Origin: Candidatus Barnesiella excrementigallinarum
GTDB taxonomy: Bacteria > Bacteroidota > Bacteroidia > Bacteroidales > Barnesiellaceae
Direction of reading: 5' to 3'
DNA length: 64,000 nt
Assembly (NCBI GenBank): GCA_019114445.1
Contig: DXFL01000017.1
Span: 1-64,000, forward strand
Shown one piece after another: positions 2,407-24,242 of this stretch. A program made the position numbers and the translations under genes. Each line of letters starts with the position of its first letter. The stretch's first letter is position 1. Under the pieces are notes generated by a model. It ran no database searches. It was given only the letters and a program-made list of their open reading frames with translations, and had not been told where the DNA came from.

Positions 2407-2452
2407 CAAAGGACCTATGATACATCACAATGCTTCTCTATCAAGAAAGTCT

Positions 2453-3055
2453 ATGAAAATAAACGAAAACAATATTATAGAACGCCTGCGAAGAGGAGAA
2501 GAAGATGCTTTTCGATATATCTACGACACATATTATGGCTATCTGTGCGCCATAGCCAAAGGATATTTGTCGGATAACGAAGCGGCCGAAACCGTGGTAG
2601 GGGACGTAATCTACAATATTTGGGAAATGCGCGAGAACCTGAACATTCACACATCGCTGCGCTCGTACCTCATACGTAGTGTAAAAAACCGCTCGATAAA
2701 CTATTTACAACAAGAATACATTTCAAAAAAAATATCCATTAATTCATTACCAGAATATACCGAAATAGAGTCGTTCTATTTCATCGAAAAAGAGCACCCG
2801 TTAGAAAAAGTTCTCGAATCGGAGCTCGAAAAGACCATCGCTGCCGCTATTGGCAATCTGCCGGAAGAGTGTCGAACCGCTTTTATTCTAAGTCGTATTT
2901 ACAACAAAAAGTACGACGAGATCGCAGATCAAATGGGCATATCGGTCAACACCGTAAAATACCATATTAAAAACGCTTTGTCAAAATTAAGATTAGAATT
3001 AAAAGACTATCTCATCATTCTTTTATTGTTTTTATTCTCGAATTTCATCACCTAA
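2453..3055 (+). CDS. ECF-family RNA polymerase sigma-70 factor (SusC/D-associated type)
   Basis: A 200-residue ECF sigma factor. Region 2 is seen in the first ~90 residues (DAFRYIYDTYYGYLCAIA, and EAAETVVGDVIYNIWE) and region 4 near residues 135-185 with a helix-turn-helix (KKYDEIADQMGISVNTVKYH). It ends in an unusual hydrophobic tail (IILLLFLFSNF). In this family the sigma factor is held by a FecR-type membrane partner and released when the cognate TonB receptor binds its ligand; here the FecR gene follows directly. The start at 2453 fits the family better than the longer frame from 2417. The promoter motif at 8372 is its likely target. Confidence 0.9.
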   Translation: MKINENNIIERLRRGEEDAFRYIYDTYYGYLCAIAKGYLSDNEAAETVVGDVIYNIWEMRENLNIHTSLRSYLIRSVKNRSINYLQQEYISKKISINSLPEYTEIESFYFIEKEHPLEKVLESELEKTIAAAIGNLPEECRTAFILSRIYNKKYDEIADQMGISVNTVKYHIKNALSKLRLELKDYLIILLLFLFSNFIT

Positions 3056-3154
3056 AAAATTCTCTCCAAAAAACATTTATAAAACTTAAAATATATTAAA
3101 ATTGAGATCTAATACCACCCTATAACGAATACAAACTGTCTTTTTTTTTGAATT

Positions 3155-4183
3155 ATGAAGAGAGTTGATACACATATAGACCACATAAACGATTTAATTC
3201 TTTCCTTTTTGAATCGGACAATTTCCCCCGCCGACTTGAAAATTCTGAAAGAGTGGATCGATGAAAGCGAGGAAAACCGAAATTATTTCTCCGAAATACA
3301 AGAAGTTTGGCTCATATCGTCTATTCAGGAGAAAAAAAATTTCGACTTGGTAAAAGACCGGGCATTCCAGCAATTCAAAAACCGTATTGCCCAAAGCGAA
3401 AAGAATAAATCCGCACGTTATATCAAGCTCACCCGGCAACGTATTTTTTATGCCGCCGCTTGTATTCTCATCGCATTTCTTGCCGGTATAGGAGTCATGT
3501 ATTTTACCGACACTCAAAAACTATCGGTTCCTACGCTCTCTTATTCGGTAGAATCTCCACGGGGCTCAAAATTAAAAATGACTCTTCCCGACGGGACATC
3601 GGTGTGGCTTAATGCCGATTCCAAACTGCTATACAACAACAACTTCGGGATAAGCAACCGCGATATTCAACTTTTTGGAGAAGGCTATTTCGAAGTCGCC
3701 AAAAACAAAGATATTCCTTTTCATATCATTTCGGACGACATAAAAGTAGAGGTATTAGGTACAAAATTCAATGTCAAAAATTATCCCGAAGACGAAAGCA
3801 TCAAAGTTGCCCTGTTAGAGGGGTCGGTTGCCTTGTACGACCCATCTGGGAGCACAAAGTTATTGCCCAATCAAATAGCGCATTACCACAAGAAAAACAG
3901 AACAACTACTTTGAAATCCATGAGTGCAGAATATGCACGTTCGTGGATCGACGGACATTTGTACTTCGACGAAGAAAACATGGAGACTATTGCTTTGGCT
4001 TTGGAACGAGCCTTCAACATAAAAATTTCCATCAAAAACGACACGTTGAAGAAAATGATATTCTACGGCGATTTTGTTATCGAGTCAAACAACATCAACG
4101 AAATCATGAATATCATGGCTGCTACCAACAAGTTTAACTACCACTACAAGATACGCAAGAACGAAATAGAAATATTTCAATAA
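3155..4183 (+). CDS. FecR-family anti-sigma factor
   Basis: A 342-residue inner-membrane regulator. A cytoplasmic N-terminal part (about residues 1-96) would bind the sigma factor. One membrane segment follows (residues ~97-117, IFYAAACILIAFLAGIGVMYF region), then a periplasmic FecR domain (about 130-235, including SPRGSKLKMTLPDGTSVWLNADS) and a C-terminal DUF4974-type domain (about 265-342). In known systems the last part contacts the STN domain of the TonB receptor. It lies 99 bases after the sigma gene and completes the trans-envelope signalling set with the SusC at 8466. Confidence 0.9.
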   Translation: MKRVDTHIDHINDLILSFLNRTISPADLKILKEWIDESEENRNYFSEIQEVWLISSIQEKKNFDLVKDRAFQQFKNRIAQSEKNKSARYIKLTRQRIFYAAACILIAFLAGIGVMYFTDTQKLSVPTLSYSVESPRGSKLKMTLPDGTSVWLNADSKLLYNNNFGISNRDIQLFGEGYFEVAKNKDIPFHIISDDIKVEVLGTKFNVKNYPEDESIKVALLEGSVALYDPSGSTKLLPNQIAHYHKKNRTTTLKSMSAEYARSWIDGHLYFDEENMETIALALERAFNIKISIKNDTLKKMIFYGDFVIESNNINEIMNIMAATNKFNYHYKIRKNEIEIFQ

Positions 4184-8465: not shown

Positions 8466-11400
8466 ATGATTAAGCATTACAGACACTTGCTATTGGCTTT
8501 GGTGATTTTCTGTAGTACTGCGATTGTTCAAGCACAGAATATCTCTCTGCGGTTGAACAATGTCACTGTCAAGGAAGCCATTGAAGCGGTCAAAAAGCAA
8601 ACCGGAAAATCGTTTTTTTTCAACGTAAATGACGTAGATTTGAACCGTGTGGTAACCATACAATTACAAAATGCCACACTCAACGAAGCTCTTTCACAGA
8701 TTCTTCGAGGCCAAAATATCCACTACGAAGTAAAAGACAATCACATTGTGCTTACTAAAAATACCCAACCGGTCACCGATGGGGCTATCAAGATCTCGGG
8801 ACAAGTAACCGACGAGAATGGGACGCCCCTTATCGGTGTAAACATTACGGCCCAATCCGGGGAAACCACCGTCACCGATATCGACGGTAATTACTCAATC
8901 CGAACAACTCCCGGCACAACTATCACGTTCTCGTACATCGGATATTTACAACAACGCATAAAAGCCGATAACCAACGAAATATCAATGTTCAAATGGTCG
9001 AAGACACAAGGGCTCTCAATGAAGTTGTCGTAATTGGTTACGGAACACAAAAGAAAGCCAACCTTACGGGTGCCGTCGACGCCATTTCGTCCAAAGAAAT
9101 CGAAGACCGCCCCGTAGCCAACCTCGGACGTGCTTTGCAGGGTGCCGCTCCCAACCTCAACATCACCTATGGTTCGGGACGCCCCAATGAAAGTACGACG
9201 ATCAACATTCGTGGATTCGGTTCTATCAACGAAGAGGCCAAACCGTTGGTCCTCATCGATGGTGTTGAAGGTAGTATCGACAACATCAACCCGCGCGACG
9301 TAGAGTCCATCTCGGTATTGAAGGATGCCTCTTCGGCCGCCATTTACGGAGCCCGTGCCTCGTTTGGTGTAATCCTCGTCACGACGAAAAAAGGTGAAGC
9401 GGGTACTGCCAAAGTGAACTACAACGGCCGGTTCAGTTTCTCGGGAACCACCGTTAGCACCGACTTTATCACAACGGGATACGATGCCGCCATGCTGGTC
9501 GACGAATTCTTCCGTTCCTACAACGGGACAACATATACCAAATATACCGCCGAAGATTATGCCGAATTGGAAGCCCGTCGCTACGACAAGGTGGAAAATC
9601 CCGACCGTCCGTGGACCGTGGTTAAAAACGTGGGTGGTATAGACCGTTATATGTACTATGCCAACTTCGACTGGTACAACTACCTTATCAGCCACACACG
9701 GCCGACTTGGGACAATAATCTGAGTATCTCCGGCGGAACGCAAAAGATGAACTATTTCGTCAGCGCCAACTACCGTACCGAAGAAGGTATCTACAAACAA
9801 AATCCCGACCGCTTCAACACGGCGAATATCCGTTCACGTATTAGCGGCGACATCAAGGACTGGTTCAACCTGACCGTGACCACTCACCTCTATCACTCGC
9901 AATACTATGCCCCCGGTTTGGAAGATGGTAGCAACATTCCCAACTACACCTTCCACGCCCTGCCGTTCATGATGCCCTATAACCCCGACGGCACATGGGT
10001 ATTCAACAATGCCGTCATCGCCCAACAACCGGCCGACGGTGTCCACATCATGACAGGCGACGCAACAACCTTTTCCAACGACAAGAAAAAACAATTGACC
10101 ACAACCGTCAATGCTATTTTCAAACTCTATAAAGGCCTCACATTCCATGCCAATTACAGCTTCCGTTACTACACGCAAGATAAGGTTGTCCGCACCTCGT
10201 TTGCCGAATACTCAACCGAACCCGGTGTGATCGAAAGTACCGGATCGGCCAACCTTTTCAAAAACAAATTGCGTCAGCATAGCGACAGCGAATACTACCA
10301 CATGGTCGATGCCTATCTCAATTACGACAATACCTTTAACGGCCACCACATTCGTGGCGTACTCGGTTTTGACTACGAGCAGGATTATTACAAAAATCTC
10401 TACTCCTATATGTTGAACCTCCAATCCAACGAATTGAACGACTTCAACTTGGGCGATCCCTCCAAAGATGTTTATCTCGAAGGTGGACAGTATGAATGGG
10501 CTTTGGAAAGTTTCTTCGGTCGTTTGGGATATGACTGGAAAGGCCGCTATTTGGCCGAGTTCAATATGCGCTGGGATGCCTCCTCGCGTTTCCGCCGCGA
10601 CAAACGGGCTGCCTTGTTCCCCTCGGTATCGGCCGGCTGGCGAGTAAGTGAAGAACCTTTCTTTGCTCCTATCCGCAACACTTTCTCCAATTTCAAAATC
10701 AGAGGTTCGTTCGGTACACTCGGCAATCAAGCCGTTTCCAGCAATTATCCCTATATACAGACCCTGAATTTGGTACAAATGGATAACTACCTCGCCAACG
10801 GCGAATTTCTTACCTATGCTTCGATTTCGGCTCCTACATCGGGCGACTTTACTTGGGAAACAGTTATCCACAAAAATATCGGTCTCGACCTCGGATTCTT
10901 CAACAACCGGTTGAATTTCTCCGGCGACTTGTACATTCGCGATACCAAAGATATGCTCGTCCCGGGCAAAACCCTCCCCGCAACTTATGGAACCTCTTCT
11001 CCGCAAGAAAACGCAGCCGACCTGCGCACGAAAGGATACGAATTGACTCTTAGCTGGAACGACAAATTCAATCTCGCCGGCAAACCATTCACTTACGGAG
11101 TATCTTTGGCATTGGGCGATAATATCTCAAAAATTACCAAATATGACAACCCCACCAAAGATTTCAACGTATCGAAATATTACGAAGGTATGACCATCGG
11201 TGAAATTTGGGGATACTCCATCGACGGGCTGTTCCAAACCGATGAAGAGGCTGCCGCCTATCAAGCCGCAGTAGACCACTCGCTCATCGCCAAGAACATT
11301 CTGCAAACAGCCGTAGGCGAATACAAAGGGCTGAAAGCCGGTGACCCCAAATTTTTCGATATCGACGGAAACGGCCGTATCGACGATGGTAAAAAAACAG

Positions 11401-11951
11401 CCGACGACCGTGGCGATATGCGCATTATCGGTAATTCGCGTCCTCGCTACAATTACAGCGGAAGCCTCAATTTCGGCTGGATGGGCTTCGATTTATCGGC
11501 CTTCTTCCAGGGTATCGGCCGCCAAAACATCTATCCCGGTACCGACGCCATGCTTTTCTGGGGCGGATTTGCTCGTCCGTATGCTTCATTTACCCCGGTC
11601 AACTTCCTCGACGACGTATGGAGCGAGGACAATCGCGATGCCTATTTCCCCAAAATCAGAGGATATGCGGCACAAGGCGACCGTCACTTGGCCTACGTGA
11701 ACGACCGCTATTTGCAAAACTTGGCTTATTGCCGTCTCAAAAACCTGACATTCGGTTACACTTTGCCGCAATCGCTCACACAGAAAGCCAAAATCGATCG
11801 CGTCCGCTTCTATTTCAGCGGCGACAACCTGTTCACTTGGACAGCTCTCAGAAGCAAATACATCGACCCCGAACAATTCGCAGTAGACGGTAATGCTCGT
11901 GTTTATCCCTACGCAAAAACATTCTCTTTCGGTATAGACATTACATTCTAA
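8466..11951 (+). CDS. susC: SusC-family TonB-dependent outer-membrane receptor with STN signalling domain
   Basis: A 1161-residue glycan importer. Order of domains: signal peptide (1-23, ending IVQAQ); STN domain (about 24-98, LRLNNVTVKEAIEAVKKQTG), which signals to FecR anti-sigma factors; carboxypeptidase-regulatory-like domain (about 105-180); plug (about 195-310, with NIRGFGSINEEAKPLVLIDG and the SVLKDASSAAIYGARA block); then a 22-strand-type barrel to the C-terminal aromatic strand. The STN domain and the nearby sigma/anti-sigma pair show that it both transports and senses its ligand. It forms a pair with SusD, 21 bases downstream. Confidence 0.95.
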   Translation: MIKHYRHLLLALVIFCSTAIVQAQNISLRLNNVTVKEAIEAVKKQTGKSFFFNVNDVDLNRVVTIQLQNATLNEALSQILRGQNIHYEVKDNHIVLTKNTQPVTDGAIKISGQVTDENGTPLIGVNITAQSGETTVTDIDGNYSIRTTPGTTITFSYIGYLQQRIKADNQRNINVQMVEDTRALNEVVVIGYGTQKKANLTGAVDAISSKEIEDRPVANLGRALQGAAPNLNITYGSGRPNESTTINIRGFGSINEEAKPLVLIDGVEGSIDNINPRDVESISVLKDASSAAIYGARASFGVILVTTKKGEAGTAKVNYNGRFSFSGTTVSTDFITTGYDAAMLVDEFFRSYNGTTYTKYTAEDYAELEARRYDKVENPDRPWTVVKNVGGIDRYMYYANFDWYNYLISHTRPTWDNNLSISGGTQKMNYFVSANYRTEEGIYKQNPDRFNTANIRSRISGDIKDWFNLTVTTHLYHSQYYAPGLEDGSNIPNYTFHALPFMMPYNPDGTWVFNNAVIAQQPADGVHIMTGDATTFSNDKKKQLTTTVNAIFKLYKGLTFHANYSFRYYTQDKVVRTSFAEYSTEPGVIESTGSANLFKNKLRQHSDSEYYHMVDAYLNYDNTFNGHHIRGVLGFDYEQDYYKNLYSYMLNLQSNELNDFNLGDPSKDVYLEGGQYEWALESFFGRLGYDWKGRYLAEFNMRWDASSRFRRDKRAALFPSVSAGWRVSEEPFFAPIRNTFSNFKIRGSFGTLGNQAVSSNYPYIQTLNLVQMDNYLANGEFLTYASISAPTSGDFTWETVIHKNIGLDLGFFNNRLNFSGDLYIRDTKDMLVPGKTLPATYGTSSPQENAADLRTKGYELTLSWNDKFNLAGKPFTYGVSLALGDNISKITKYDNPTKDFNVSKYYEGMTIGEIWGYSIDGLFQTDEEAAAYQAAVDHSLIAKNILQTAVGEYKGLKAGDPKFFDIDGNGRIDDGKKTADDRGDMRIIGNSRPRYNYSGSLNFGWMGFDLSAFFQGIGRQNIYPGTDAMLFWGGFARPYASFTPVNFLDDVWSEDNRDAYFPKIRGYAAQGDRHLAYVNDRYLQNLAYCRLKNLTFGYTLPQSLTQKAKIDRVRFYFSGDNLFTWTALRSKYIDPEQFAVDGNARVYPYAKTFSFGIDITF

Positions 11952-11972: not shown

Positions 11973-13778
11973 ATGAAAAAGAATATAATATATATTTTGA
12001 CGGCGGTCGGAGCCTTATCGCTCGGGAGTTGTGTCGATAATCTCGACCGTTATCCGTTATCTTCACTCTCACCCGAAACCTATTTCAATAGCGAAGAAGA
12101 GTTGAGAACCTACACCAATAATTTCTATGGACAATTCCCCGTTGCCTCATCGGGATACGGCGAGTCGGAAGATGTCGTATGTATCTTCACCCTACCCGCC
12201 ACAACCGTAGGGCTCACTCGTACGATCCCCACAAAAGGCGGTGGTTGGGATTGGGGCTACCTGCGTAATATCAACCTCTACCTGCAATATTCACACCGCT
12301 GCAACAGCCAATCGGCCCGGGAACACTACGACGGCATAGCCCGTTTCTTCCGTGCCTATTTCTACTTCGAGAAAGTAAAACGGTTCGGCGATGTACCCTG
12401 GTACAACAGGCCCCTCGAATCGACCGATCCCGATTTGAAAAAACCGCGCGACTCGCGTCAACTCATCATGGACTCGGTTTTGGCCGACATCGATTATGCC
12501 ATCAAATACATACCGAGCGATCAAGACCTTTATTTGGTAACCAAATGGACCGCCATGGCGCTAAAATCGAGAATCTGTTTGTTCGAAGGTACTTTCCGTA
12601 AATATCACGGTATCGAGGGATATGAGAAATTCCTCAACGAGTGCGTCAGCATTTCGGAACAATTCATCGACGAAAGCCCTTACAGCATTTATCAAACCGG
12701 CGATAAACCTTACCGCGACCTTTTCGCCTCGATGGATGCCATCAAACAGGAAGTGATTTTGGCTCGCGACTACGATGCCACCAAAGCCGTGAAACACGAA
12801 GCCAACTACAACACCATGGCTACAACATACGGACGACCGGGCATGAACAAAAAAATTGTCAACAGCTACCTTATGACCGACGGCTCTCGCTTTACCGACA
12901 TTCCCGGATATGAAACCATGCAGTATTACGACGAAATGCAAAACCGCGATCCCCGCTTGACACAAACGGTGGTAGGGCCCGGTTATATGCGTATCAACAG
13001 CGACGCCGTTATGTCGCCCGACTTCTCGGCATCGACTACCGGCTACCAAATTATCAAATGGGTAACCGATGCTTCGGGCGACGGCTACATGGGTTCGTCG
13101 AACGACTATATCCTCTTCCGTGCCGCCGAAGTCTACCTGAACTTTGCCGAGGCCAAAGCCGAATTGGGAACCCTCACACAAGCCGATTTGGACAAATCGA
13201 TCAAGAAAATTCGCGACCGCGTAGGTATGCCCAACATCGACCTCGCTGCGGCCAATGCCAATCCCGACCCCTACCTGATGGGCGAACAAACCGGCTACCG
13301 CAACGTAACCGGAGCCAACAAAGGTGTTATTTTGGAAATCCGTCGCGAGCGCACCATCGAGTTGGTACTCGAAGGGTTCAGATACTACGACCTTATGCGT
13401 TGGAAAGAGGGTAAGATGTTTGAACAACCCTATTTGGGTATGTACTTCCCCGAACTTACCGAAGGTGAAGGTGAAAACCGCTATGGTGTATTCGATATGA
13501 ACGACGGTACCCTCCAAGACGGAGCCAAAGTAGATATCTGCGTCTACACCGGCAAGAAACCTTCGGTAAAGAATATCCGTAAATTCTACAAATTGGGCGA
13601 AGAATTCGTATTGACCGAAGGTGATCACGGCAACATCATTTGCCACGACATCACCAAAGAGCCTCGCGAGTTTAACGAAGAGCGCGATTATCTCTTCCCC
13701 ATACCTACGACCGAACGCTCCTTGACCAATGGAGCCCTCACTCAAAACCCCGGTTGGAACGACGGGTTAAGTTTCTAA
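11973..13778 (+). CDS. susD: SusD/RagB-family surface glycan-binding lipoprotein
   Basis: A 601-residue lipoprotein (signal IIYILTAVGALSLGSC, cysteine at residue 20) that forms the lid over the SusC barrel and captures oligosaccharide. It carries typical family features: N-terminal YPLSSLSPETYFNSEEELRTYTNNFY, TPR-like helices with RFFRAYFYFEKVKRFGDVPW, and the C-terminal block EIRRERTIELVLEGFRYYDLMRWK. Length is within the normal range. A hairpin follows the gene at 13789, so susCD may be a discrete transcript with partial read-through. Confidence 0.95.
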   Translation: MKKNIIYILTAVGALSLGSCVDNLDRYPLSSLSPETYFNSEEELRTYTNNFYGQFPVASSGYGESEDVVCIFTLPATTVGLTRTIPTKGGGWDWGYLRNINLYLQYSHRCNSQSAREHYDGIARFFRAYFYFEKVKRFGDVPWYNRPLESTDPDLKKPRDSRQLIMDSVLADIDYAIKYIPSDQDLYLVTKWTAMALKSRICLFEGTFRKYHGIEGYEKFLNECVSISEQFIDESPYSIYQTGDKPYRDLFASMDAIKQEVILARDYDATKAVKHEANYNTMATTYGRPGMNKKIVNSYLMTDGSRFTDIPGYETMQYYDEMQNRDPRLTQTVVGPGYMRINSDAVMSPDFSASTTGYQIIKWVTDASGDGYMGSSNDYILFRAAEVYLNFAEAKAELGTLTQADLDKSIKKIRDRVGMPNIDLAAANANPDPYLMGEQTGYRNVTGANKGVILEIRRERTIELVLEGFRYYDLMRWKEGKMFEQPYLGMYFPELTEGEGENRYGVFDMNDGTLQDGAKVDICVYTGKKPSVKNIRKFYKLGEEFVLTEGDHGNIICHDITKEPREFNEERDYLFPIPTTERSLTNGALTQNPGWNDGLSF

Positions 13779-13788
13779 ATGATTGAAA

Positions 13789-13824
13789 ACATAGTTGTCG
13801 GACATTCTTATCCGACAGCTATGT
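13789..13824 (+). terminator. hairpin terminator after susD
   Basis: ACATAGTTGTCGGA pairs with TCCGACAGCTATGT (14 base pairs, one mismatch or wobble) across an 8-base loop, followed by TGATTT. The sequence just before it, CTAAATGATTGAAA, recurs before the related hairpin at 16248, so the two intergenic regions are copies of each other. Confidence 0.6.
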
Positions 13825-13900
13825 TGATTTAATCATCTTTATCCTTATCAAGGGAAAACCATTAAAAACACATTATATCATTAACTATAATTTTCTACGT

Positions 13901-16162
13901 ATGAAAAAGTTTACTTTATTCAGTAAGAAAGCGCTCATGGCAGCTTTCTTATGCTGCTCTTTACCAGCTTTCTGTGAAGACACTTGGACATTCAATTCCA
14001 CAGAAGTTGCAGAATATGCTGCATTCTTCAAACAACCATCGGCCATCGAAGGGAAATGCAATGCCGAAGTAATGGGCATCGACATCAACCGCGAAGGCTT
14101 CTCATGGGACGATATGAATACTTGGAAAAATGCCGAAGGTGTACTGTGGCGGGCCTACTCGTCGGGGTATGCCGAAACTGTATTCGGAGTCTGTGTAAAT
14201 AATTCGGCTCCATTTAACGGGAAAACCAGCGGTTTGACATGGACTACGACAGAAGGTGACAACCAATGGTATCCTGCAATAGCCGGAGTAGCCAACCTGA
14301 AAGGGACATTCTCACTCACAAACTGTTTGGCTACGGTAGTACATATCTCCGGCACACAAATGGATACAGTGCGAATCCAAATGACCAACACAAACAGCGA
14401 TTGCTACCTGCACGTACGTCGTAACTTGAATCTCAAACAACTCGACCTGAGCGGTTCGACCGGTAAATGCCGTCAGCTGGCCGGATACCGCAACGCCTTT
14501 ACCGACGCCAACTCGTTCATTTGCAACGACTGCCGTCAAACCGAATTCCTCGACTGGTTACTCAATCTCGAAGACAACCTCTATACCTTCTCCACGCTAC
14601 CCGTTCACCCGGCTACCGGAGCCATACTCACCAGCGGGTATAAATCTCAATGGAATGCCCGTGGCGGATATCCCATCGGCACGAAAAACCAAGATGGGGA
14701 GTATATGGTTGCCATCGATGAAGAGATCGATCTTTCCAGCGAATATTCGGTTCAAGGTAATACCACCGTATACACTTGGAAAGATACAAACGGTAGCGTA
14801 ATTACCCCTTCCGTAGCTACAGGAGGACGATTCAGTTTCGATACCTCGCACGCAGGGAATACCTATTACTGCGAAATGACAAATGCTACTTATCCTCAAC
14901 TAACATTGAAAACCGTACAAGTAACCGTAAAAGAGCCGAACAGATTTAATTTCAATGCCGAAGAAGTGAAGGCTTACGCCGATTTCTTCAAACAACCATC
15001 GGCCGTCGAAGGGAAATGCAATGCCGAAGTTGTAGGTATCGATATCAACCGAAAAGGTTTTTCGTGGGACGACATGAACACATGGAGAAATGCCGAAGGT
15101 AACCTTTGGGTAGGAGCCGAACCTGCCGAAGACGGATCGGGCTACTGTGTCACCTTCTTTGGCGTGGCCGTAAACAGTTGGAGCCCCTATTATGGAAAGA
15201 CTTCCAATTTGAAATGGTTCCCGTATGAAGATTCCGAAGAATCGTATCAAGATCCGGTTCCCGGAGCCGAAAACCTGAAAGGTACATTTGCTATGGAAAA
15301 CTGCCTCGTAAACGTACTCCGCATTCAAGACACACAAATCGATACCATTCGTTTGCAAATGAACAATACGGCCAACAGCTATATGCATGTGCGCCGTAAC
15401 TTAAACCTCAAACAGCTCGACCTGAGTGGTTCGACCGGCAAAATCCGTCAGTTGGCCGGATACCGTAACGCCTTTACCGATGCCAATTCGTTCATTTGCA
15501 CCGGTTGCCCCCAAACCGAATTCCTCGACTGGCTGCTCAACCTCGAAGACAACCTCTACACCTTCTCGACAATACCGGTACACCCGGCCACCGGAGCCAT
15601 ACTCACCAGCGGTTACAAACTGCAATGGAATGCCCGTGGCGGATATCCTATCGGTACGAAAAACCAAGATGGTGTATACGAGATTGCTATCAACGAAGTA
15701 ATTGATCTTTCCAGCGAATATAACGTCCACAACAACACAACCGTATATACATGGAAAGACCACGCCGGAAATACAATCACCCCGACCGTAGCTACGGAAG
15801 GCCGATTCAGTTTCGATAAGTCGCACATAGGGCAAACTTACCGTTGCGAAATGACAAACGCTACCTATCCCCAAATGACATTGAACACCGTGGAGGTAAC
15901 CGTTATCGATCCGCAGGCATCGGGTATTGAACAAGCCAATAAAGCCCATGTGACAGTGGCTCCCAATCCGGCAACCGACTACATCGTAATCGAAGGTACC
16001 GAGGTATTGAAAGCACAAATCTATTCGTTGGCTGGCGCTTGCGTGAAGAGTGTCGAAGCCGGAGTACAAACTATCGATGTCGCCGATTTGGCATCGGGTA
16101 TGTACTTGGTACAGATTTCGACACCCGAAGGTGTTCAATCGGTGAAATTTATCAAGAAATAA
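13901..16162 (+). CDS. secreted two-module LRR/Ig-like repeat protein with T9SS sorting domain
   Basis: A 753-residue exported protein of unknown family. After the signal peptide (1-26) come two copies of one module: residues 28-346 and 347-672. Each begins with a block around FFKQPSA.EGKCNAEV and FSWDDMNTW. A single leucine-rich-repeat-like block follows (RRNLNLKQLDLSGSTGK, RQLAGYRNAFTD), then TEFLDWLLNLEDN. Each ends in a ~75-residue Ig-like part (VYTWKD...Y.CEMTNA.YPQ). Residues 686-753 form a type-A T9SS sorting domain (VAPNPATDYI...AGMYLVQIS pattern). It takes the place of SusE/F-type binding lipoproteins after SusD, so a surface glycan-binding role is inferred, not shown. Confidence 0.75.
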   Translation: MKKFTLFSKKALMAAFLCCSLPAFCEDTWTFNSTEVAEYAAFFKQPSAIEGKCNAEVMGIDINREGFSWDDMNTWKNAEGVLWRAYSSGYAETVFGVCVNNSAPFNGKTSGLTWTTTEGDNQWYPAIAGVANLKGTFSLTNCLATVVHISGTQMDTVRIQMTNTNSDCYLHVRRNLNLKQLDLSGSTGKCRQLAGYRNAFTDANSFICNDCRQTEFLDWLLNLEDNLYTFSTLPVHPATGAILTSGYKSQWNARGGYPIGTKNQDGEYMVAIDEEIDLSSEYSVQGNTTVYTWKDTNGSVITPSVATGGRFSFDTSHAGNTYYCEMTNATYPQLTLKTVQVTVKEPNRFNFNAEEVKAYADFFKQPSAVEGKCNAEVVGIDINRKGFSWDDMNTWRNAEGNLWVGAEPAEDGSGYCVTFFGVAVNSWSPYYGKTSNLKWFPYEDSEESYQDPVPGAENLKGTFAMENCLVNVLRIQDTQIDTIRLQMNNTANSYMHVRRNLNLKQLDLSGSTGKIRQLAGYRNAFTDANSFICTGCPQTEFLDWLLNLEDNLYTFSTIPVHPATGAILTSGYKLQWNARGGYPIGTKNQDGVYEIAINEVIDLSSEYNVHNNTTVYTWKDHAGNTITPTVATEGRFSFDKSHIGQTYRCEMTNATYPQMTLNTVEVTVIDPQASGIEQANKAHVTVAPNPATDYIVIEGTEVLKAQIYSLAGACVKSVEAGVQTIDVADLASGMYLVQISTPEGVQSVKFIKK
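13982..14938 (+). repeat. repeat module copy 1
   Basis: First ~319-residue module of the protein at 13901. Copies 2 and 3 are at 14939-15916 and 16527-17480. Cysteines in GKCNAEV and in the CxxC of ICNDC, and the central LRR-like block, are shared. Confidence 0.85.
14939..15916 (+). repeat. repeat module copy 2
   Basis: Second module of the same protein. The first third has diverged (for example VGAEPAEDGSGY instead of RAYSSGYAE), while the LRR-like middle and the part through NARGGYPIGTKNQDG are nearly identical to copy 1 even at DNA level. This uneven pattern suggests gene conversion between the copies. Confidence 0.85.
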
Positions 16163-16247
16163 ATTTTATACGCGAAAAGGCAAAGCAACAGAGTTAAAAC
16201 GACCTGTTTGCCGAATCGTATAAATTCTCTAAATGATTGAAATGCGG

Positions 16248-16284
16248 CATAGTTGCCGAGAAGTTCATCTCCTCGGCAACTATG
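16248..16284 (+). terminator. hairpin terminator after the two-module gene
   Basis: CATAGTTGCCGAG pairs perfectly with CTCGGCAACTATG (13 base pairs) around an 11-base loop and is followed by TTTGTAC. It is related in sequence and position to the hairpin at 13789. Confidence 0.65.
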
Positions 16285-16342
16285 TTTGTACAATCGGGAA
16301 AGTAAAAAAAGAATCGTCGCATAATATTTTTTCACATTTACC

Positions 16343-16370
16343 GACTACCCGCTCAGCTCAAAAAACTGTC
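16343..16370 (+). promoter_or_regulatory. candidate ECF sigma promoter of the one-module gene
   Basis: GACTACCC (16343-16350), 15 bases, CTGTC (16366-16370), ending 67 bases before the start codon at 16437. Motif, spacing and distance are identical to the susC copy at 8372, with 12 bases of perfect identity (GACTACCCGCTC) in the upstream half. It would let the downstream gene set respond to the same sigma factor. Confidence 0.6.
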
Positions 16371-16436
16371 ATTCTATTAAAAACACACGAAATCATTAAA
16401 AACACATTCATATCATTAACTCAAAAATTTTTACGT

Positions 16437-17732
16437 ATGAAAAAAGTTACATCTTTTGGTAAGAAGGCTCTGTTGGCTGCCTTTTTATGTTGTTGTTCTC
16501 TCCCCGGCTTTGCCGAAGATACCCAAACTTGGTTGTTCGACGCTGAAGAAACAGCTCAATATGCCGAATTCTTTAAACAACCGTCGGCTATCGAAGGGAA
16601 ATGCAATGCCGAAGTTTTAGGCATCGATATCAACCGCGAGGGTTTTTCGTGGGACGATATGAACACTTGGAAAAACTCCGAAGGTAAATTGTGGCGAGCC
16701 TACTCGTCGGGATACTCCGAGACACTGTTTGGAGTTTGTGTAAATGCTTCGGCTCCATTCAACTATAAGACCAGCGGTTTGACATGGACTACGACAGAAG
16801 GTGACAACCAATGGTATCCGGCCATTGCCAGTGTGAAAGATTTGAAAGGCTCATTTACCTTTAACAACTGTGTGGCCACAGTCGTTCATATCTCGGGTAC
16901 ACAAATGGAAAAAGTGAAAATCCAAATGACCAACGAAGACGCAGATTGCTATTTGCACATTCGTCGTAACTTACAGTTGAAAGAACTCGATTTGAGCGAT
17001 TCGAACGGTAAATGCCGTCAGTTGGCCGGATACCGCAACGCTTTTACCGATGAAAGCTGCTTGATCTGCAACAACTGCCGCCAAACCGAATTCCTCGACT
17101 GGTTGCTCAACCTCGAAGACAATATGTACACCTTCTCGACAATACCTATGCACCCGGCAACTGGCAAAAAACTCGAATCGGGTTACAAACTGCAATGGAA
17201 CGCTCGTGGCGGTATGCCTATCGGATACCAAAATCCGGACGGTGAATACGAAATCATGGTCGATGAAGATATAGACCTTTCGGGTGAATATGATATCGAT
17301 GGTTTCATGACTATCTATACTTGGAAAGACATCGATGGCAATGTCATTGAACCCACCGATGCCGTAGAAGGATGGTTCTGCTTCGATGAATCGCACGTAG
17401 GAAAAGAATATCGTTGCGAAATGATCAACGAAGCTTATCCTCAATTAGCTTTGAACACCGTCTTTGTAAAAGTTGTTGACGAATATACTTCGGGTATTCA
17501 AGGTGCCACTAAGGCTGCTGTAAAGGTTGGTCCCAACCCTGCCGACGACTATATCACTATCAAAGGTGCCGAAGTACTGAAAGCTCAGGTTTACTCTTTG
17601 GCAGGTACCTGCGTGAAGAACGTAGCAGCCGGAGCCCAAAAAGTCGACATCGCCGACCTCACACCCGGTATGTACCTGATCAAGATCGTTACGACCGAAG
17701 GTGAAACAACTGCTAAATTCATCAAGAAATAA
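16437..17732 (+). CDS. secreted one-module LRR/Ig-like repeat protein with T9SS sorting domain
   Basis: A 431-residue paralogue of the protein at 13901. The frame is open from 16233, but the start at 16437 is chosen: it opens a signal peptide (MKKVTSFGKKALLAAFLCCC, ending FAED) matching that of its neighbour, and the leader sequences before both ATGs align. It has one module (residues 31-348) and a type-A T9SS sorting domain (364-431, VGPNPADDYI...PGMYLIKI). The module shares the FFKQPSAIEGKCNAEV block, the LRR-like centre and the Ig-like end. Function unknown; a surface binding protein acting with SusCD is the most economical idea. Confidence 0.75.
   Translation: MKKVTSFGKKALLAAFLCCCSLPGFAEDTQTWLFDAEETAQYAEFFKQPSAIEGKCNAEVLGIDINREGFSWDDMNTWKNSEGKLWRAYSSGYSETLFGVCVNASAPFNYKTSGLTWTTTEGDNQWYPAIASVKDLKGSFTFNNCVATVVHISGTQMEKVKIQMTNEDADCYLHIRRNLQLKELDLSDSNGKCRQLAGYRNAFTDESCLICNNCRQTEFLDWLLNLEDNMYTFSTIPMHPATGKKLESGYKLQWNARGGMPIGYQNPDGEYEIMVDEDIDLSGEYDIDGFMTIYTWKDIDGNVIEPTDAVEGWFCFDESHVGKEYRCEMINEAYPQLALNTVFVKVVDEYTSGIQGATKAAVKVGPNPADDYITIKGAEVLKAQVYSLAGTCVKNVAAGAQKVDIADLTPGMYLIKIVTTEGETTAKFIKK
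16527..17480 (+). repeat. repeat module copy 3
   Basis: Single module of the protein at 16437, closer to copy 1 in its first third (both have WRAYSSGY and TSGLTWTTTEGDNQWYPAIA), which shows that the intergenic duplication started from copy 1 or its ancestor. Confidence 0.85.
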
Positions 17733-17747
17733 AATTTACTACTAAAT

Positions 17748-17786
17748 AATGACAGGCAAAATATTTTTCGTATTTTGCCTGTCATT
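17748..17786 (+). terminator. hairpin before the phosphodiesterase-like gene
   Basis: AATGACAGGCAAAATA pairs perfectly with TATTTTGCCTGTCATT (16 base pairs) around a 7-base loop. There is no T-run after it on the plus strand, and it ends 20 bases before the next start codon. It may be an attenuator or an RNA-stabilising structure instead of a full terminator. Confidence 0.5.
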
Positions 17787-17806
17787 AAAAAATAGATTTA
17801 TCAATT

Positions 17807-18895
17807 ATGAAAAAAATTGTCCTACTCTTTATTATTTGTTTTGTCGCTCTCGGGGTAAGTGCCCAAACCTATCCCAAAGCCTCTAATGTTATTCGATTGC
17901 TCACCTACAACACCCACTATTGCAAAGGTGGTAGTGATCCCGGGTCAATCGACAATTACAATACGAGGCGCCTCGCTTTGGTCATCGAAGCCCTCGATGC
18001 CGATGTAGTAGCTTTACAAGAGTTGGACAGCGCCATGAATGGTCGGGGACGCAGAGATTTGTTGAAACAAATCGCCGACTATACCAATCTCCCCTATAAC
18101 CGCATATTCGGAGGGATTTACAGCCTGGATGGAGGTAAAATAGGCCCGGGGATACTGGTTAAAAACAATCTCCCCATCGTAAAGACAAAACTTATCTCAC
18201 TGGGAGGATCCAGCGAAGAACGTTGCGCTGCACGCGTCGACTTAGAACATTTTACCTTTATCTGTACTCACCTCGATTTGGACGACAATTTGCGAATTAT
18301 GAGTGCCAATACATTAATCAACGAAGTGGACTACATACGCAAACCGGTATTTTGCGCCGGTGATATGAACGACTCACACCTTTGGGGACAAGGAGGCATT
18401 GCTTTCCCTACGCTGCTCACCAAATATACCATTGTAAGCGACACCGAGGGTAATACCATGCCGGGACGTGACTACGGCGAAGCTCTTATCGACTATATCC
18501 TGTACCACGATTACAAAAATTCGGGTATCAAAATTATCGACACCCATATCGTGAGAGAGCTGAAAGTGGAAGGTTCGGTTATCGATTTGGCCTCCGTATC
18601 GGATCACTATCCGGTATTTGTCGACATCGAAGTCCCCGGATACAACAGTATAGAAAATACGGTAGTCAACAATGCCGTCAATATCTATCCCACTTATGTT
18701 CAAAACACACTGAACATAGAAAGTGAAACCCCGATTGAAAACATAAACATCTACTCCATAACCGGACAGAAACAAATGCAAATCGACGGTTCGAACCTCG
18801 AAACCATTGATGTTTCGGCTTTATCGAAAGGCATCTATATTGTAGAAGTTTCGGCCGGGAATTCTTCTTTCAAAACCAAGATCATCAAACCATAA
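17807..18895 (+). CDS. endonuclease/exonuclease/phosphatase-fold enzyme with T9SS sorting domain
   Basis: A 362-residue exported enzyme of the EEP fold (a metal-dependent phosphodiesterase or phosphatase superfamily). Signal peptide 1-19. Family motifs are complete: LLTYNTHYCKG (Asn), VVALQELDS (Glu), CTHLDL, AGDMNDS (Asp/Asn), and SDHYPVF (Asp-His). Residues from about 290 form a T9SS sorting domain (NIYPTYVQNTLNIE, ending SKGIYIVEVSAG). A shorter paralogue without this tail lies at 21165. EEP members include sphingomyelinases, inositol phosphatases and nucleases; its setting suggests removal of a phosphate-linked group from a host glycoconjugate, which is inference. Confidence 0.85.
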   Translation: MKKIVLLFIICFVALGVSAQTYPKASNVIRLLTYNTHYCKGGSDPGSIDNYNTRRLALVIEALDADVVALQELDSAMNGRGRRDLLKQIADYTNLPYNRIFGGIYSLDGGKIGPGILVKNNLPIVKTKLISLGGSSEERCAARVDLEHFTFICTHLDLDDNLRIMSANTLINEVDYIRKPVFCAGDMNDSHLWGQGGIAFPTLLTKYTIVSDTEGNTMPGRDYGEALIDYILYHDYKNSGIKIIDTHIVRELKVEGSVIDLASVSDHYPVFVDIEVPGYNSIENTVVNNAVNIYPTYVQNTLNIESETPIENINIYSITGQKQMQIDGSNLETIDVSALSKGIYIVEVSAGNSSFKTKIIKP

Positions 18896-20218: not shown

Positions 20219-21118
20219 ATGAAAAAAATAGTTTTGGCAATCGCCTTATTACAAGCGACACTACTTCCCTCTTTTGCACAAGACTGGCCTAATTTGGCTC
20301 AATATCAGGAGGCCAATGCCGCACTGTTAGCCGGGGGAGACGACCCCAAAAGAGTAGTTTTCATGGGTAACTCCATATTTGAACGTTGGGAAAGCACTTG
20401 TCCCGAGTTTTTCTCCGGTTCGTATGTGTGTCGGGGTATCTCGGGACAAACTACCCCACAAATGCTTATCCGGTTCAAACAAGATGTGGTACATTTGAAA
20501 CCCCAAGTCGTTGTCATTTTGGGCGGAACAAACGATATTGCAGGTAATACAGGCCCCTCGACTATCGAGATGATCGAAGACAACCTCTCGTCTATGGCCG
20601 AAATCGCCACAGCCCACGGAATAAAAGTAATACTTTGCCAGTTACTGCCGGCATACCAGTATAATTGGGCTCCCGATGTAGATCCCAAACAAACGATTAT
20701 CGACCTCAACAAATGGATTCAAGAATATGCCGCCGAGCACAACTATCCGTGTGTCGACTTCTATACCCCGCTGGTAAATCCCTTCAAAGCGCTGAAAGTT
20801 GAATATTCGGTAGGCGATGGCGTACATCCCAATGCCGACGGATATGCCGTAATGGCTCCCCTTGTCGAAGCAGCGATAAACGAAGCCTTTGAGGAAAGCG
20901 GCATTTCGCAAACCTCACAAAAAGAGGCCCAAGCGTGGGGCGGGAAATCGACAATCTATTTCAACGCACAATCGCCCGAACAGATTAAAATCTATACACT
21001 CGACGGCATTTGTATAGGCGAACACCTTTTACCCGCCGGAATATCCAACGTAAATATCGCCGCCGGAACCTATTTGGTAAAAACGGAAAAAGAGACTACA
21101 AAAGTTGTCGTACGATAA
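20219..21118 (+). CDS. SGNH/GDSL hydrolase with degenerate T9SS-like C-terminal tail
   Basis: A 299-residue exported esterase of the SGNH superfamily, close to platelet-activating-factor acetylhydrolase-like bacterial proteins. Signal peptide 1-20. Blocks: FMGNSIFERW (nucleophile Ser, with Asn instead of the usual Asp), GISGQTTPQML, LGGTNDIAGN, and DGVHPNADGY with catalytic Asp and His. After residue ~240 there is a tail (IYFNAQSPEQIKIYTLDG, AAGTYLVKTE) that looks like a shortened T9SS sorting domain. With the neighbouring esterase it gives the locus two deacylases, suited to O-acetylated glycans. Confidence 0.85.
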   Translation: MKKIVLAIALLQATLLPSFAQDWPNLAQYQEANAALLAGGDDPKRVVFMGNSIFERWESTCPEFFSGSYVCRGISGQTTPQMLIRFKQDVVHLKPQVVVILGGTNDIAGNTGPSTIEMIEDNLSSMAEIATAHGIKVILCQLLPAYQYNWAPDVDPKQTIIDLNKWIQEYAAEHNYPCVDFYTPLVNPFKALKVEYSVGDGVHPNADGYAVMAPLVEAAINEAFEESGISQTSQKEAQAWGGKSTIYFNAQSPEQIKIYTLDGICIGEHLLPAGISNVNIAAGTYLVKTEKETTKVVVR

Positions 21119-21164: not shown

Positions 21165-21998
21165 ATGCAAAAATTACTATTATTCTCCCTTTTCATTTCG
21201 GTAATACTCCTGCCTGTTCAAGCTCAAACCTATCCCAAAGCACCCGGTACCATACGGTTGCTCACCTACAACACTCACTATTGCAAGGGAGGAGGCGATC
21301 CCGGCGAATTGAAAGACGAATATATAACCAACCTCGCCCGTGTCATACGCGCCCTCGATCCCGATGTCATTGCGTTACAAGAACTCGACAGTGCCGCCCG
21401 CAGCCGCGGGAAACGCTACCTGCTGCATGAGATCGCACAACGAACCGGCTTGGAATATACCGACGTTTACGGCAACGCCGCACACTTCGACAAAGGGAGT
21501 ATAGGCTGCGGAGCCTTAATCAAAAAAGATCTACCTATACTTAGCCGATATATTGCCTATCTCCCCGGTGACGAAGGCCGCGCGGCAGTAGAGGTCGAAC
21601 TCGATAAATTCGTGTTCATCGCTACCCATTCCGACCTCCACAACGAGAAACGGCGACAAGGTATGAAAATCATCTGCAACGATGTCCACAAAATGGACAA
21701 GCCCGTATTCGTTGCCGGCGACTTGAACGACTCGTTCCGATGGGAGGAACAGTATTCGTCGTTCCCCGTATTATTGAATGACTTTGTAATTGCCAGCGAC
21801 ACGATTGGCAGTTCGGTTACCAATAGGACCGACGGCAAAGGATTGATCGATTTCGTCCTGCTCAGTAAAAAACACCAAAAGAAGATTAAGATTGTAGATA
21901 CCCACATTATCCGGGAAATGGAGATAGACGGAGAAAAAGTGGATATGAAAACCGTCTCGGATCACTACCCCGTATTTGTAGACATATATTGTAAATAG
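21165..21998 (+). CDS. endonuclease/exonuclease/phosphatase-fold enzyme (paralogue without sorting tail)
   Basis: A 277-residue exported EEP-fold protein, clearly related to the one at 17807: the segment TYPKA, TIRLLTYNTHYCKGGGDPG and the end SDHYPVFVDI align closely. Motifs: NTHYCKG, IALQELDS, ATHSDL, AGDLNDS, SDHYPVF. It has a signal peptide (1-20) but stops straight after the catalytic domain. With no T9SS tail it should remain in the periplasm, unlike its paralogue. The two may act on the same phosphodiester before and after import; that is inference. Confidence 0.85.
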   Translation: MQKLLLFSLFISVILLPVQAQTYPKAPGTIRLLTYNTHYCKGGGDPGELKDEYITNLARVIRALDPDVIALQELDSAARSRGKRYLLHEIAQRTGLEYTDVYGNAAHFDKGSIGCGALIKKDLPILSRYIAYLPGDEGRAAVEVELDKFVFIATHSDLHNEKRRQGMKIICNDVHKMDKPVFVAGDLNDSFRWEEQYSSFPVLLNDFVIASDTIGSSVTNRTDGKGLIDFVLLSKKHQKKIKIVDTHIIREMEIDGEKVDMKTVSDHYPVFVDIYCK

Positions 21999-22043: not shown

Positions 22044-24242
22044 ATGATTAAACAGCTCTTATTCATCTTGGTACTTGGCATATTCCTTTCGGTAACCTCC
22101 TGCTCGAAATCTCCCGATTACGAAAAATCGGCACAACAGTTGGCCGAACGTATCATTCCGGGACATGAGAAAGAGTTTGTCTTCACCCTTGTCCCTGCCG
22201 AAAAAGATTTTTTCGAACTGAGACAAAAAGGTGACAAAATAGAGATTTTGGGAAACAACGGAATCTCCATGTGCCGCGGGTTGAACCACTATCTGCGTCA
22301 CTACTGCCATGCTTCCGTATCGTGGTGCGGCGAAAATGTTTCGAACATTCCCGATACATTACCCACAATAACCGCCCCGATCCATATCGAAGCCTCCCAA
22401 CCGCTCCGATACTATCTCAATTATTGTACATACAGCTATTCGATGGCTTTTTGGGGGTGGAACGAATGGGAAAAAGAGATCGACCGTATGGCACTTCAAG
22501 GTATCAACCTCCCGCTCATGGCCGTCAACAGCCAATATGCCGTTTGGCAAAACACCCTCAAACGGTTGGGATATACCGAGGAAGAGATACTCGACTTTCT
22601 CCCCGGAGCCGGTTATGAGGCATGGTGGCTGATGGGGAACCTCGAAGGATTCGGCGGACCCGTTTCTCAAGAATTTATTGCACGGCAAACCGAACTCCAA
22701 CAAAAGATGCTCCACCGCATGAGAGAGCTGGGTATGCAACCGGTATTTCAAGGGTTTTACGGTATGGTGCCGAACAGCCTGAAAGAAAAATTCCCAACGG
22801 CCCGCATTTTCGAACAAGGTGAATGGTGTACCTACCAACGCCCTGCATTTCTCGATCCCAACGACCCGCTCTTCGACCAAATAGCCGATATATATTATCA
22901 AGAACAGGAAAAGCTATTCGGCGAGGCCAAATATTTTGCGGGCGACCCATTTCACGAAGGTGGGCAGTCGGAAGGAATCGACGTAAAAGCGGCTGCCGGG
23001 AAAATATTGCAGGCCATGCGCCGCCACTCCTCCCAAGCCGTATGGATTTTGCAAGGTTGGCAACACAACCCCATGCGTGCGCTCATGGAGGGATTGCAAC
23101 AAGGCGATGCCATCATTCTCGACCTAATGGCTTGTGAAAGGCCGCAATGGGGCGGAATAAAAAGTTCTATGTTCCATAAACCCGAAGGGCATATGTACCA
23201 CAACTGGATTTGGTGCGCCCTCCCCAATTTCGGAGGGAAAACCGGGCTGCACGGAAAGATGAGCAGCTACGCATCGGGACCTGTCTTTGCCAAAAATCAC
23301 CCATTGGGCAAAAACTTGTGCGGAATAGGTGCCGCCCCCGAAGGGATAGGTACCATACCGGTCGTATACGATATGGTATATGATATGGCGTGGAGAGAAG
23401 ACAGCATAACGATTCACGACTGGCTCGAAGAGTACACGCTATACCGATATGGGAAACCCGACTCGGCCTGCAACCGTGCTTGGGATATACTGTCGAAATC
23501 TATTTATGAATGTCACAACGAAACAGGAGGCCCGGTAGAATCGTACATCTGTGCCCGGCCTGCCGACACGATCAAAACCGTATCGGCTTGGGGTAACGCC
23601 GAAATATTTTATAACCCTGCGGTTATTGTCGACGCATGGGAACTGATGTTTTCCGCACGGGAAAACTTCGCCCAATGCGATACCTACTCGTACGACTTGG
23701 TCGATTTGACCCGGCAGGTACTAAGCGACTACATGAAATATTTGCACACCCATGCCGTACGGGCATTCAACCGAAACGACATCGAGGGATTTCAACGCCA
23801 TGCCTCCCGAATGCTCGACATCATACGCGACGACGACAAACTACTCTCTTCCCGAAAAGAATTTAACGTGGGGACTTGGATAAAACAGGCCGAAAATGCC
23901 GGGTGTACCCCCCATGAGAAAGAGCAATTCGTGGCTAATGCCAAACGGCAAATTACCACGTGGACCGACTACGATTCGAAACTGCACGACTACGCCCACA
24001 AAGAATGGGGCGGGTTGATACGCGACTTGTATCTGCCCCGATGGGAAGCTTGGTTCAACTATAAATTGGCCTTGCTAAAAGGCGAAAAAGTTGAGAAACC
24101 CGACTATTTCAATTTAGAACAGGCTTGGGTCAACAACGGGAAAAAATACGACGAACCGGTCGACACTCAATCGATAAATATTGTAGCGGATATTTACAAA
24201 AGCTATATCGACGAGTTACGGCAATCCTATAAAAATAGTTAA
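22044..24242 (+). CDS. alpha-N-acetylglucosaminidase, GH89 (NAGLU family)
   Basis: A 732-residue lipoprotein (VTSCSKS, cysteine 20) of family GH89, which removes terminal alpha-linked GlcNAc from mucin O-glycans or heparan-type chains. The N-terminal domain (about 25-110) is followed by the catalytic barrel starting near YLNYCTYSYSMAFWGWNEWEKEID, a family hallmark. Likely catalytic residues are Glu305 in GDPFHEGG and Glu433 in AAPEGIG, at the positions of Glu316 and Glu446 of human NAGLU. The helical C-terminal third is complete. It points to alpha-GlcNAc as a key sugar of this locus. Confidence 0.93.
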   Translation: MIKQLLFILVLGIFLSVTSCSKSPDYEKSAQQLAERIIPGHEKEFVFTLVPAEKDFFELRQKGDKIEILGNNGISMCRGLNHYLRHYCHASVSWCGENVSNIPDTLPTITAPIHIEASQPLRYYLNYCTYSYSMAFWGWNEWEKEIDRMALQGINLPLMAVNSQYAVWQNTLKRLGYTEEEILDFLPGAGYEAWWLMGNLEGFGGPVSQEFIARQTELQQKMLHRMRELGMQPVFQGFYGMVPNSLKEKFPTARIFEQGEWCTYQRPAFLDPNDPLFDQIADIYYQEQEKLFGEAKYFAGDPFHEGGQSEGIDVKAAAGKILQAMRRHSSQAVWILQGWQHNPMRALMEGLQQGDAIILDLMACERPQWGGIKSSMFHKPEGHMYHNWIWCALPNFGGKTGLHGKMSSYASGPVFAKNHPLGKNLCGIGAAPEGIGTIPVVYDMVYDMAWREDSITIHDWLEEYTLYRYGKPDSACNRAWDILSKSIYECHNETGGPVESYICARPADTIKTVSAWGNAEIFYNPAVIVDAWELMFSARENFAQCDTYSYDLVDLTRQVLSDYMKYLHTHAVRAFNRNDIEGFQRHASRMLDIIRDDDKLLSSRKEFNVGTWIKQAENAGCTPHEKEQFVANAKRQITTWTDYDSKLHDYAHKEWGGLIRDLYLPRWEAWFNYKLALLKGEKVEKPDYFNLEQAWVNNGKKYDEPVDTQSINIVADIYKSYIDELRQSYKNS

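What the first reader, a model, noticed from the sequence alone, without database searches (positions are those of the whole stretch)
13901..17732. New-looking T9SS-exported repeat module replacing SusE/F-type binding proteins
Two adjacent genes after susCD encode three copies of one ~320-residue module: a conserved N-terminal block (FFKQPSA.EGKCNAEV, FSWDDMNTW), a single LRR-like turn, a W/L-rich strip and an Ig-like end. Both proteins carry a signal peptide and a type-A T9SS sorting tail. In most Bacteroidales loci this position holds lipoprotein surface glycan-binding proteins. Here the candidates would leave through the type IX system instead. I know of no described domain matching the module.
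Basis: partly seen in the sequence, partly recalled or inferred. Interest (0 to 1): 0.72.

Follow-up and report, generated by a model that had tools for sequence, protein, structure and literature searches.

The report
Exported repeat proteins in sugar locus
Two neighbouring genes in a gut bacterium's sugar-harvesting locus make probably exported surface proteins built from a worn-down form of a known leucine-rich-repeat module, sitting where such loci usually carry a fat-anchored sugar-binding protein.

Summary
Three ~320-residue modules (70-75% identical) lie in two genes directly after susD, each gene with a signal-peptide-like leader and a T9SS type-A tail; T9SS core genes are in the genome. 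'No described domain' holds only at Pfam/NCBIfam/PDB level. Profile comparison shows the module is a reduced LRR-Ig unit, as in large leucine-rich-repeat proteins of other Bacteroidales, several T9SS-tailed (hhalign E 1.8e-30 over the whole module; N-block, middle and Ig end each match alone; best of 50 column shuffles E 0.074). Relatives carry InlJ-type repeats; here one turn is marginally recognisable. The full-length module turned up in five genomes, always in one locus type (804-aa protein, EEP x2, GH89, GH3, GH20; susCD in four of five), and among 9 genus genomes only in the 3 with the susD ortholog. Of 15 SusD-family matches in this genome, only this one is followed at once by a T9SS-tailed gene; 11 of the other 14 are followed by a gene with a lipobox-like signal. 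Best reading: a T9SS-displayed, LRR-derived surface binding protein serving this locus. Ligand and glycan binding are untested; the structure model is poor outside the Ig part and tail. New variant of a known kind.

The parts
13901..16162 (+). P1: signal-peptide-like leader, two modules, T9SS type-A tail (753 aa)
13985..14944 (+). module 1 (N-block, worn leucine-repeat stretch, Ig-like end)
14945..15919 (+). module 2; groups with module 1 in the tree (support 100/99), so probably an internal duplication
15956..16159 (+). T9SS type-A sorting domain of P1
16437..17732 (+). P2: signal-peptide-like leader, one module, T9SS type-A tail (431 aa; the frame opens at 16233)
16530..17489 (+). module 3; groups with the single module of G003 (Barnesiella sp. 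An22)
17529..17729 (+). T9SS type-A sorting domain of P2; in the model this part (residues 330-400) matches solved T9SS cargo tails
13772..13850 (+). stable hairpin between susD and P1
   Evidence: z -7.58
16225..16305 (+). stable hairpin between P1 and P2
   Evidence: z -6.47
17728..17800 (+). stable hairpin between P2 and EEP1
   Evidence: z -8.33
8466..11951 (+). SusC with N-terminal STN domain
11973..13778 (+). SusD
17807..18895 (+). EEP1: endonuclease/exonuclease/phosphatase-family protein with T9SS tail
21165..21998 (+). EEP2: second protein of that family, no tail found
22044..24242 (+). GH89 (NAGLU) alpha-N-acetylglucosaminidase of the same locus
2417..4183 (+). ECF sigma factor and FecR anti-sigma pair that probably drives the locus

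Best explanation
P1 and P2 are non-enzymatic surface proteins, exported by the type IX system, whose body is a reduced LRR-Ig unit: an N-terminal leucine-repeat cap, a short worn stretch of leucine-repeat turns, and an Ig-like end. The unit shares ancestry with the long leucine-rich-repeat proteins of other Bacteroidales and was taken over by one locus (ECF sigma/FecR, SusCD, GH20, GH89, GH3, EEP proteins). Most likely working: the SusC STN domain and the FecR/sigma pair switch the locus on; P1 and P2 pass the inner membrane by Sec and the outer membrane by T9SS, PorU removes the tail and links them to surface LPS (general knowledge of T9SS); the conserved cap face then holds a GlcNAc-containing target next to SusCD and the co-exported EEP protein, the job SusE/F-type lipoproteins do elsewhere. 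Shown here: homology, tails, T9SS genes, position, constraint. Inferred: export, anchoring, ligand binding and the ligand.
Against: No binding evidence of any kind. No Pfam or NCBIfam LRR model recognises the module. The one recognisable leucine turn is marginal (32 of 1000). The AlphaFold model is poor (mean pLDDT 52.6; residues 1-110 about 33), so the LRR part is not confirmed structurally. A susCD paralog in G002 is followed directly by an EEP gene with no module, and L077 has the module with no susCD between it and the 804-aa gene, so the pairing is not strict. 15 of the 19 N-caps come from two related proteins, and the hhalign relatives were chosen for being under 300 aa, apart from L054.
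Confidence: 0.5

Rival explanations
1. The module does what LRR surface proteins of this kind are known for: it binds a protein (mucin core, host or partner-cell protein, or the EEP and GH partners as a scaffold) and anchors cells or enzymes at the food source, without binding sugar.
For: The closest characterised proteins by repeat type are InlJ-like adhesins; P. gingivalis InlJ interacts with Candida Als3 and Listeria InlJ can bind MUC2 (passages of PMC5915736). In 10 fetched loci of LRR relatives (6.8-18 kb each) no SusC or SusD like the window's was found at E 1e-8 over more than 120 residues, so the wider family is not tied to glycan uptake.
Against: Tight link of the module to one susCD/GH89 locus; the long repeat surface such adhesins use is nearly gone.
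Confidence: 0.3
2. The module is an enzyme or enzyme subunit (esterase, phosphodiesterase or hydrolase) rather than a binder.
For: A 34-residue N-terminal stretch (module residues 14-47) is nearly invariant across the modules compared, with several acidic residues.
Against: No enzyme family match in Pfam, NCBIfam or PDB sequences; the stretch is homologous to a cap of LRR proteins; tandem copies in P1 fit a binder better (inference).
Confidence: 0.07
3. The module is a wholly new domain and its likeness to LRR-Ig proteins is confined to a shared Ig-like end.
For: In the first order-wide search most outside matches covered only the Ig-like end, and the leucine-repeat signal is marginal.
Against: N-block and middle match on their own and in the same order; one outside match (G248) covers residues 2-156.
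Confidence: 0.06

Closest known systems
LRR-Ig proteins of other Bacteroidales with InlJ-type leucine repeats (e.g. L091, L094, L054, L084)
   Same: Same order of N-cap, repeat stretch, FSTLP-like junction and Ig-like end; L091 and L094 carry a T9SS tail over the Pfam cut-off, L054 just under the NCBIfam one
   Different: Most have many regular repeats; here one turn is marginally recognisable. The contrast is not absolute: two units of L084 (residues 1099 and 1326 on) have one and no motif match. The 10 relatives' loci tested have no SusC or SusD like the window's
SusE/SusF-type surface glycan-binding lipoproteins
   Same: Position right after susD in a polysaccharide locus; no catalytic family
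   Different: No visible lipobox; T9SS tail; glycan binding untested
T9SS-exported proteins in polysaccharide loci such as ChiA of Flavobacterium johnsoniae (PMC5127042, passages)
   Same: A locus-encoded protein leaves by T9SS instead of as a lipoprotein
   Different: ChiA is a chitinase; P1 and P2 match no enzyme family

Membership tests
T9SS type-A cargo | C-terminal sorting domain above the curated cut-off | tested here: met
   TIGR04183 48.5 and 43.7 bits, cut-off 23
T9SS type-A cargo | Sorting-domain fold | tested here: met
T9SS type-A cargo | Genome encodes the T9SS machine | tested here: met
   PorU family, SprA_N and GldN over cut-off; three core parts tested, not all
T9SS type-A cargo | Actual T9SS-dependent surface display | not testable with these tools
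   needs a porU or sov deletion and surface proteomics
LRR-Ig unit of Bacteroidales LRR proteins | N-terminal cap (L..FL.QPSA..GK.N) | tested here: met
LRR-Ig unit of Bacteroidales LRR proteins | Ig-like end | tested here: met
   C part alone against relatives E 6e-23; ten-residue pLDDT means of 54-84 over residues 231-320
LRR-Ig unit of Bacteroidales LRR proteins | Array of regular leucine repeats | tested here: not met
   No Pfam LRR match; one turn at 32 of 1000 shuffles. Hence described as a reduced relative, not filed as an LRR protein
SusE/F-type surface glycan-binding protein | Encoded directly after susD in a polysaccharide locus | tested here: met
SusE/F-type surface glycan-binding protein | Lipoprotein signal | tested here: not met
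   Leaders read by eye: no [AGS]C lipobox in P1, P2 or the four relatives; three of those four (G002, G068, L077) end in A-Q; no signal predictor was on hand
SusE/F-type surface glycan-binding protein | Binds glycan | not testable with these tools
   no assay

The most novel reading that the evidence does not exclude
The module is a new class of carbohydrate-binding domain evolved from an LRR cap, displayed through T9SS as a replacement for SusE/F lipoproteins, and specific for a phosphate-bearing GlcNAc glycan (such as a GlcNAc-decorated teichoic acid or a phosphoglycan) that the EEP proteins, GH89 and GH20 of the locus take apart.
Probability: 0.15. Interest if true: 0.7.

Novelty: new variant of a known kind. 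Interest (0 to 1): 0.42.

Why it matters
If right, it shows a T9SS surface-protein module shortened and locked into a polysaccharide utilisation locus in the place of the usual glycan-binding lipoprotein. It offers a small module with a near-invariant block, and a conserved locus (EEP plus GH89 plus GH20) whose unknown substrate could be found by binding and digestion assays.

Tried and rejected
Pfam, NCBIfam and PDB searches of the module gave no usable family; weak matches such as zf-C2HC_3 or DUF4124 are below cut-off, cover few residues and were set aside. Viral contigs gave nothing. The genome-contig scan used only two peptide patterns and confirmed 2 of 66 stretches, and the order search drew 393 genomes, so five genomes is a lower bound. 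AlphaFold on 5 sequences was poor outside the Ig part and tail; the VIA second look tests mainly residues 327-400; no row of its 50 is named an LRR protein, which says nothing about the N-terminal part. A plain Foldseek search could not be started. An exact Bacteroides-type promoter pattern (recalled) gave two + strand sites, 33619 and 34847, both outside the locus; the - strand was not scanned. Sigma-70-like sites were at chance level (8 found, 7.9 expected). The scan for T-tailed terminators found none on the + strand, though stable hairpins are there. Paper searches: T9SS with surface glycan binding protein (0 papers); type IX secretion with polysaccharide utilization and leucine-rich repeat; Barnesiella with type IX secretion; T9SS with leucine-rich repeat, C-terminal domain and Bacteroidetes; T9SS with SusD, polysaccharide utilization and secreted (12 listed); EEP with polysaccharide utilization loci and SusD. 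The titles and abstract starts listed do not describe this module; their full texts were not read apart from passages of PMC5915736, PMC8225759, PMC5831590 and PMC5127042, and subscription papers are not covered. PMC5831590 (passages) reports a T9SS-rich rumen genome that lacks polysaccharide loci, so it is no precedent for this arrangement.
Full report
What is there. Between susD (ends 13778) and an EEP-family gene (starts 17807) lie two genes on the + strand. P1 (13901-16162, 753 aa) holds two copies and P2 (likely start 16437, 431 aa) one copy of a module of about 320 residues; copies 2 and 3 are 72% and 73% identical to copy 1. Both genes have a hydrophobic leader without a visible lipobox and a type-A T9SS tail. 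In a tree of 7 modules, modules 1 and 2 group together and module 3 groups with the single module of G003 (root at the midpoint only), which suggests a gene duplication followed by an internal one. dN/dS of module 3 against G003 is 0.056; other pairs that could be computed over the whole module gave 0.157 and 0.193.

Where it lives. The window's genome is in the genus of G003, whose contig C5 has the length (85558) of the Barnesiella sp. An22 contig found. Full-length modules were found in G000, G002 and G003 (the other 6 of 9 genomes match only from query residue 283 on, that is Ig end and tail), in G068 of another family (18 of 393 order genomes match the profile at all, and only G000, G002 and G068 over the full length; G003 was not in that draw) and in L077, an uncultured Bacteroides MAG. 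All five share the locus: the 804-aa protein (56-77% identical to the window's), EEP1, EEP2, GH89, GH3 and a GH20 were matched in all four relatives; SusC and SusD in G003, G002 and G068 but not in the L077 stretch; FecR in all four; the GH20 before susC only in the genus, and the two esterase genes only in G003. Some of these matches are cut by the end of the fetched stretch. SusD at 84-100% identity is in exactly the 3 of 9 genus genomes with the module. A 74% SusD paralog in G002 is followed by an EEP gene without a module, and its SusC lies in two overlapping frames.

Is the SusE/F position really taken over? The genome has 15 SusD-family matches; one (C20) is weak and is followed by what looks like an unrelated gene. 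I read the first gene of 100 aa or more after each (the 14 others fetched). None of those 14 coincides with a T9SS tail listed. By a crude lipobox pattern 11 of the 14 have a lipobox-like signal; two of these look like enzymes by eye (an EEP-like one in L111 and a sulfatase-like one in L120). Of the other 3, L112 is EEP-like without lipobox, L115 looks like the SusC of the next pair, L123 is the weak case. So T9SS cargo directly after susD was seen only at this locus in this genome, while T9SS cargo as such is common: 74 tail matches at E up to 0.1, 59 marked over the cut-off.

What the module is. Alone it matches nothing usable in Pfam, NCBIfam or the PDB. An order-wide profile search found outside matches mostly to its last 80-150 residues, many in large proteins. 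Reading a set of those proteins shows, in several, a unit: a cap of the pattern L..FL.QPSA..GK.N, then leucine repeats, then an FSTLP-like junction, then an Ig-like end; others (e.g. L087, L088) have the repeats and Ig end without this cap. Because the relatives were picked mainly by the Ig end, the cap is a fair test: an HMM from 19 caps (15 from two related proteins) scores P1 45.0 and P2 28.5 bits; the best of 1000 shuffles of P1 and P2 scores 9.1. hhalign of 7 modules against 8 relatives' units (those under 300 aa in L084 and L085, plus L054) gives E 1.8e-30 over columns 3-318; the N part, middle and C part give 2.1e-8, 6.8e-6 and 6e-23 when taken alone, while 50 column shuffles reach at best 0.074. 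The relatives scanned match LRR_4 and the InlJ model. The cap profile also touches a plant LRR receptor, PSKR1 4z63, at E 0.0016 over its residues 32-72, a hint that it is an LRR N-cap in general; the other 7 rows of that search are above 0.2.

Export. PorU-family (two neighbouring genes), SprA_N and GldN are in the genome over their cut-offs. Leaders of G002, G068 and L077 end in A-Q, as many exported proteins of this phylum do (the Q-rule is the subject of PMC10653852, seen only as a listing with the start of its abstract); those of P1, P2 and G003 do not. Surface display is inferred.

Function. The locus has SusC with an STN domain and an ECF/FecR pair, typical by general knowledge of host-glycan loci. 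GH89 enzymes cut terminal alpha-GlcNAc, in mucin-type (GlcNAc-alpha1-4Gal) or heparosan-type glycans (passages of PMC8225759). The EEP proteins, and a NAGPA phosphodiester glycosidase beside an EEP protein in a related locus of G007, suggest that phosphodiester-linked glycans may be the food; this is a guess, and DNase activity of the EEP proteins is equally open. T9SS export from a polysaccharide locus has a precedent in ChiA (passages of PMC5127042). A binder that holds the substrate near SusCD is the most likely role; a protein-binding adhesin is the main rival, since InlJ-type proteins bind proteins or mucin (passages of PMC5915736).

Regulation detail. Stable hairpins follow susD, P1 and P2 (z -7.58, -6.47, -8.33; 0 of 200 shuffles each), so transcript levels may step down from susCD to the later genes; this is inference.

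Verdict. A real and conserved feature with a traceable ancestry, in an unusual place; new variant of a known kind.

Noticed in passing
window 4255-6669: An 804-aa protein with no family at cut-off (weak matches Pectate_lyase_2, Filamin; PDB best E 0.44) has relatives of 56-77% identity in the locus of all four other genomes that hold the module.
   Followed up: partly
L096 3700-12475 (and L097 6361-15169, similar by gene sizes and ends): Related susCD (about 50% SusD identity) followed by a protein with a below-cut-off T9SS tail, an 847-aa protein with a NAGPA phosphodiester glycosidase domain and an EEP protein with a weak beta-helix match (only L096 was scanned).
   Followed up: partly
L111 and L112 (G000:C19, G000:C23): EEP-like genes also follow two other SusD genes of the window's genome, one of them next to a GH20-like gene (by eye).
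   Followed up: no
window 13772-13850, 16225-16305, 17728-17800: Very stable hairpins after susD, P1 and P2; the first two share flanking letters by eye, as if copied with the gene, though the MAFFT alignment does not pair them.
   Followed up: partly
L095 13858-18918: Second susCD copy in G002 with SusC in two overlapping frames, followed by an EEP gene whose end looks like a T9SS tail, and no module.
   Followed up: no
G000:C29:52059-52274; L104-L109: A frame of 350-406 aa with the same N-cap is found in 33 of the 43 genomes that match the cap profile; the five read are leucine-rich-repeat proteins.
   Followed up: partly
G000:C7:21988-30145: Two neighbouring PorU-family sortase genes.
   Followed up: no
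window 20219-21118: GDSL esterase with a below-cut-off T9SS tail (18.8 bits, cut-off 23), perhaps a further T9SS cargo of the locus.
   Followed up: no
L077 6611-6960: In this MAG the module gene follows the 804-aa gene directly, with no susCD between; loss or assembly gap not settled.
   Followed up: no
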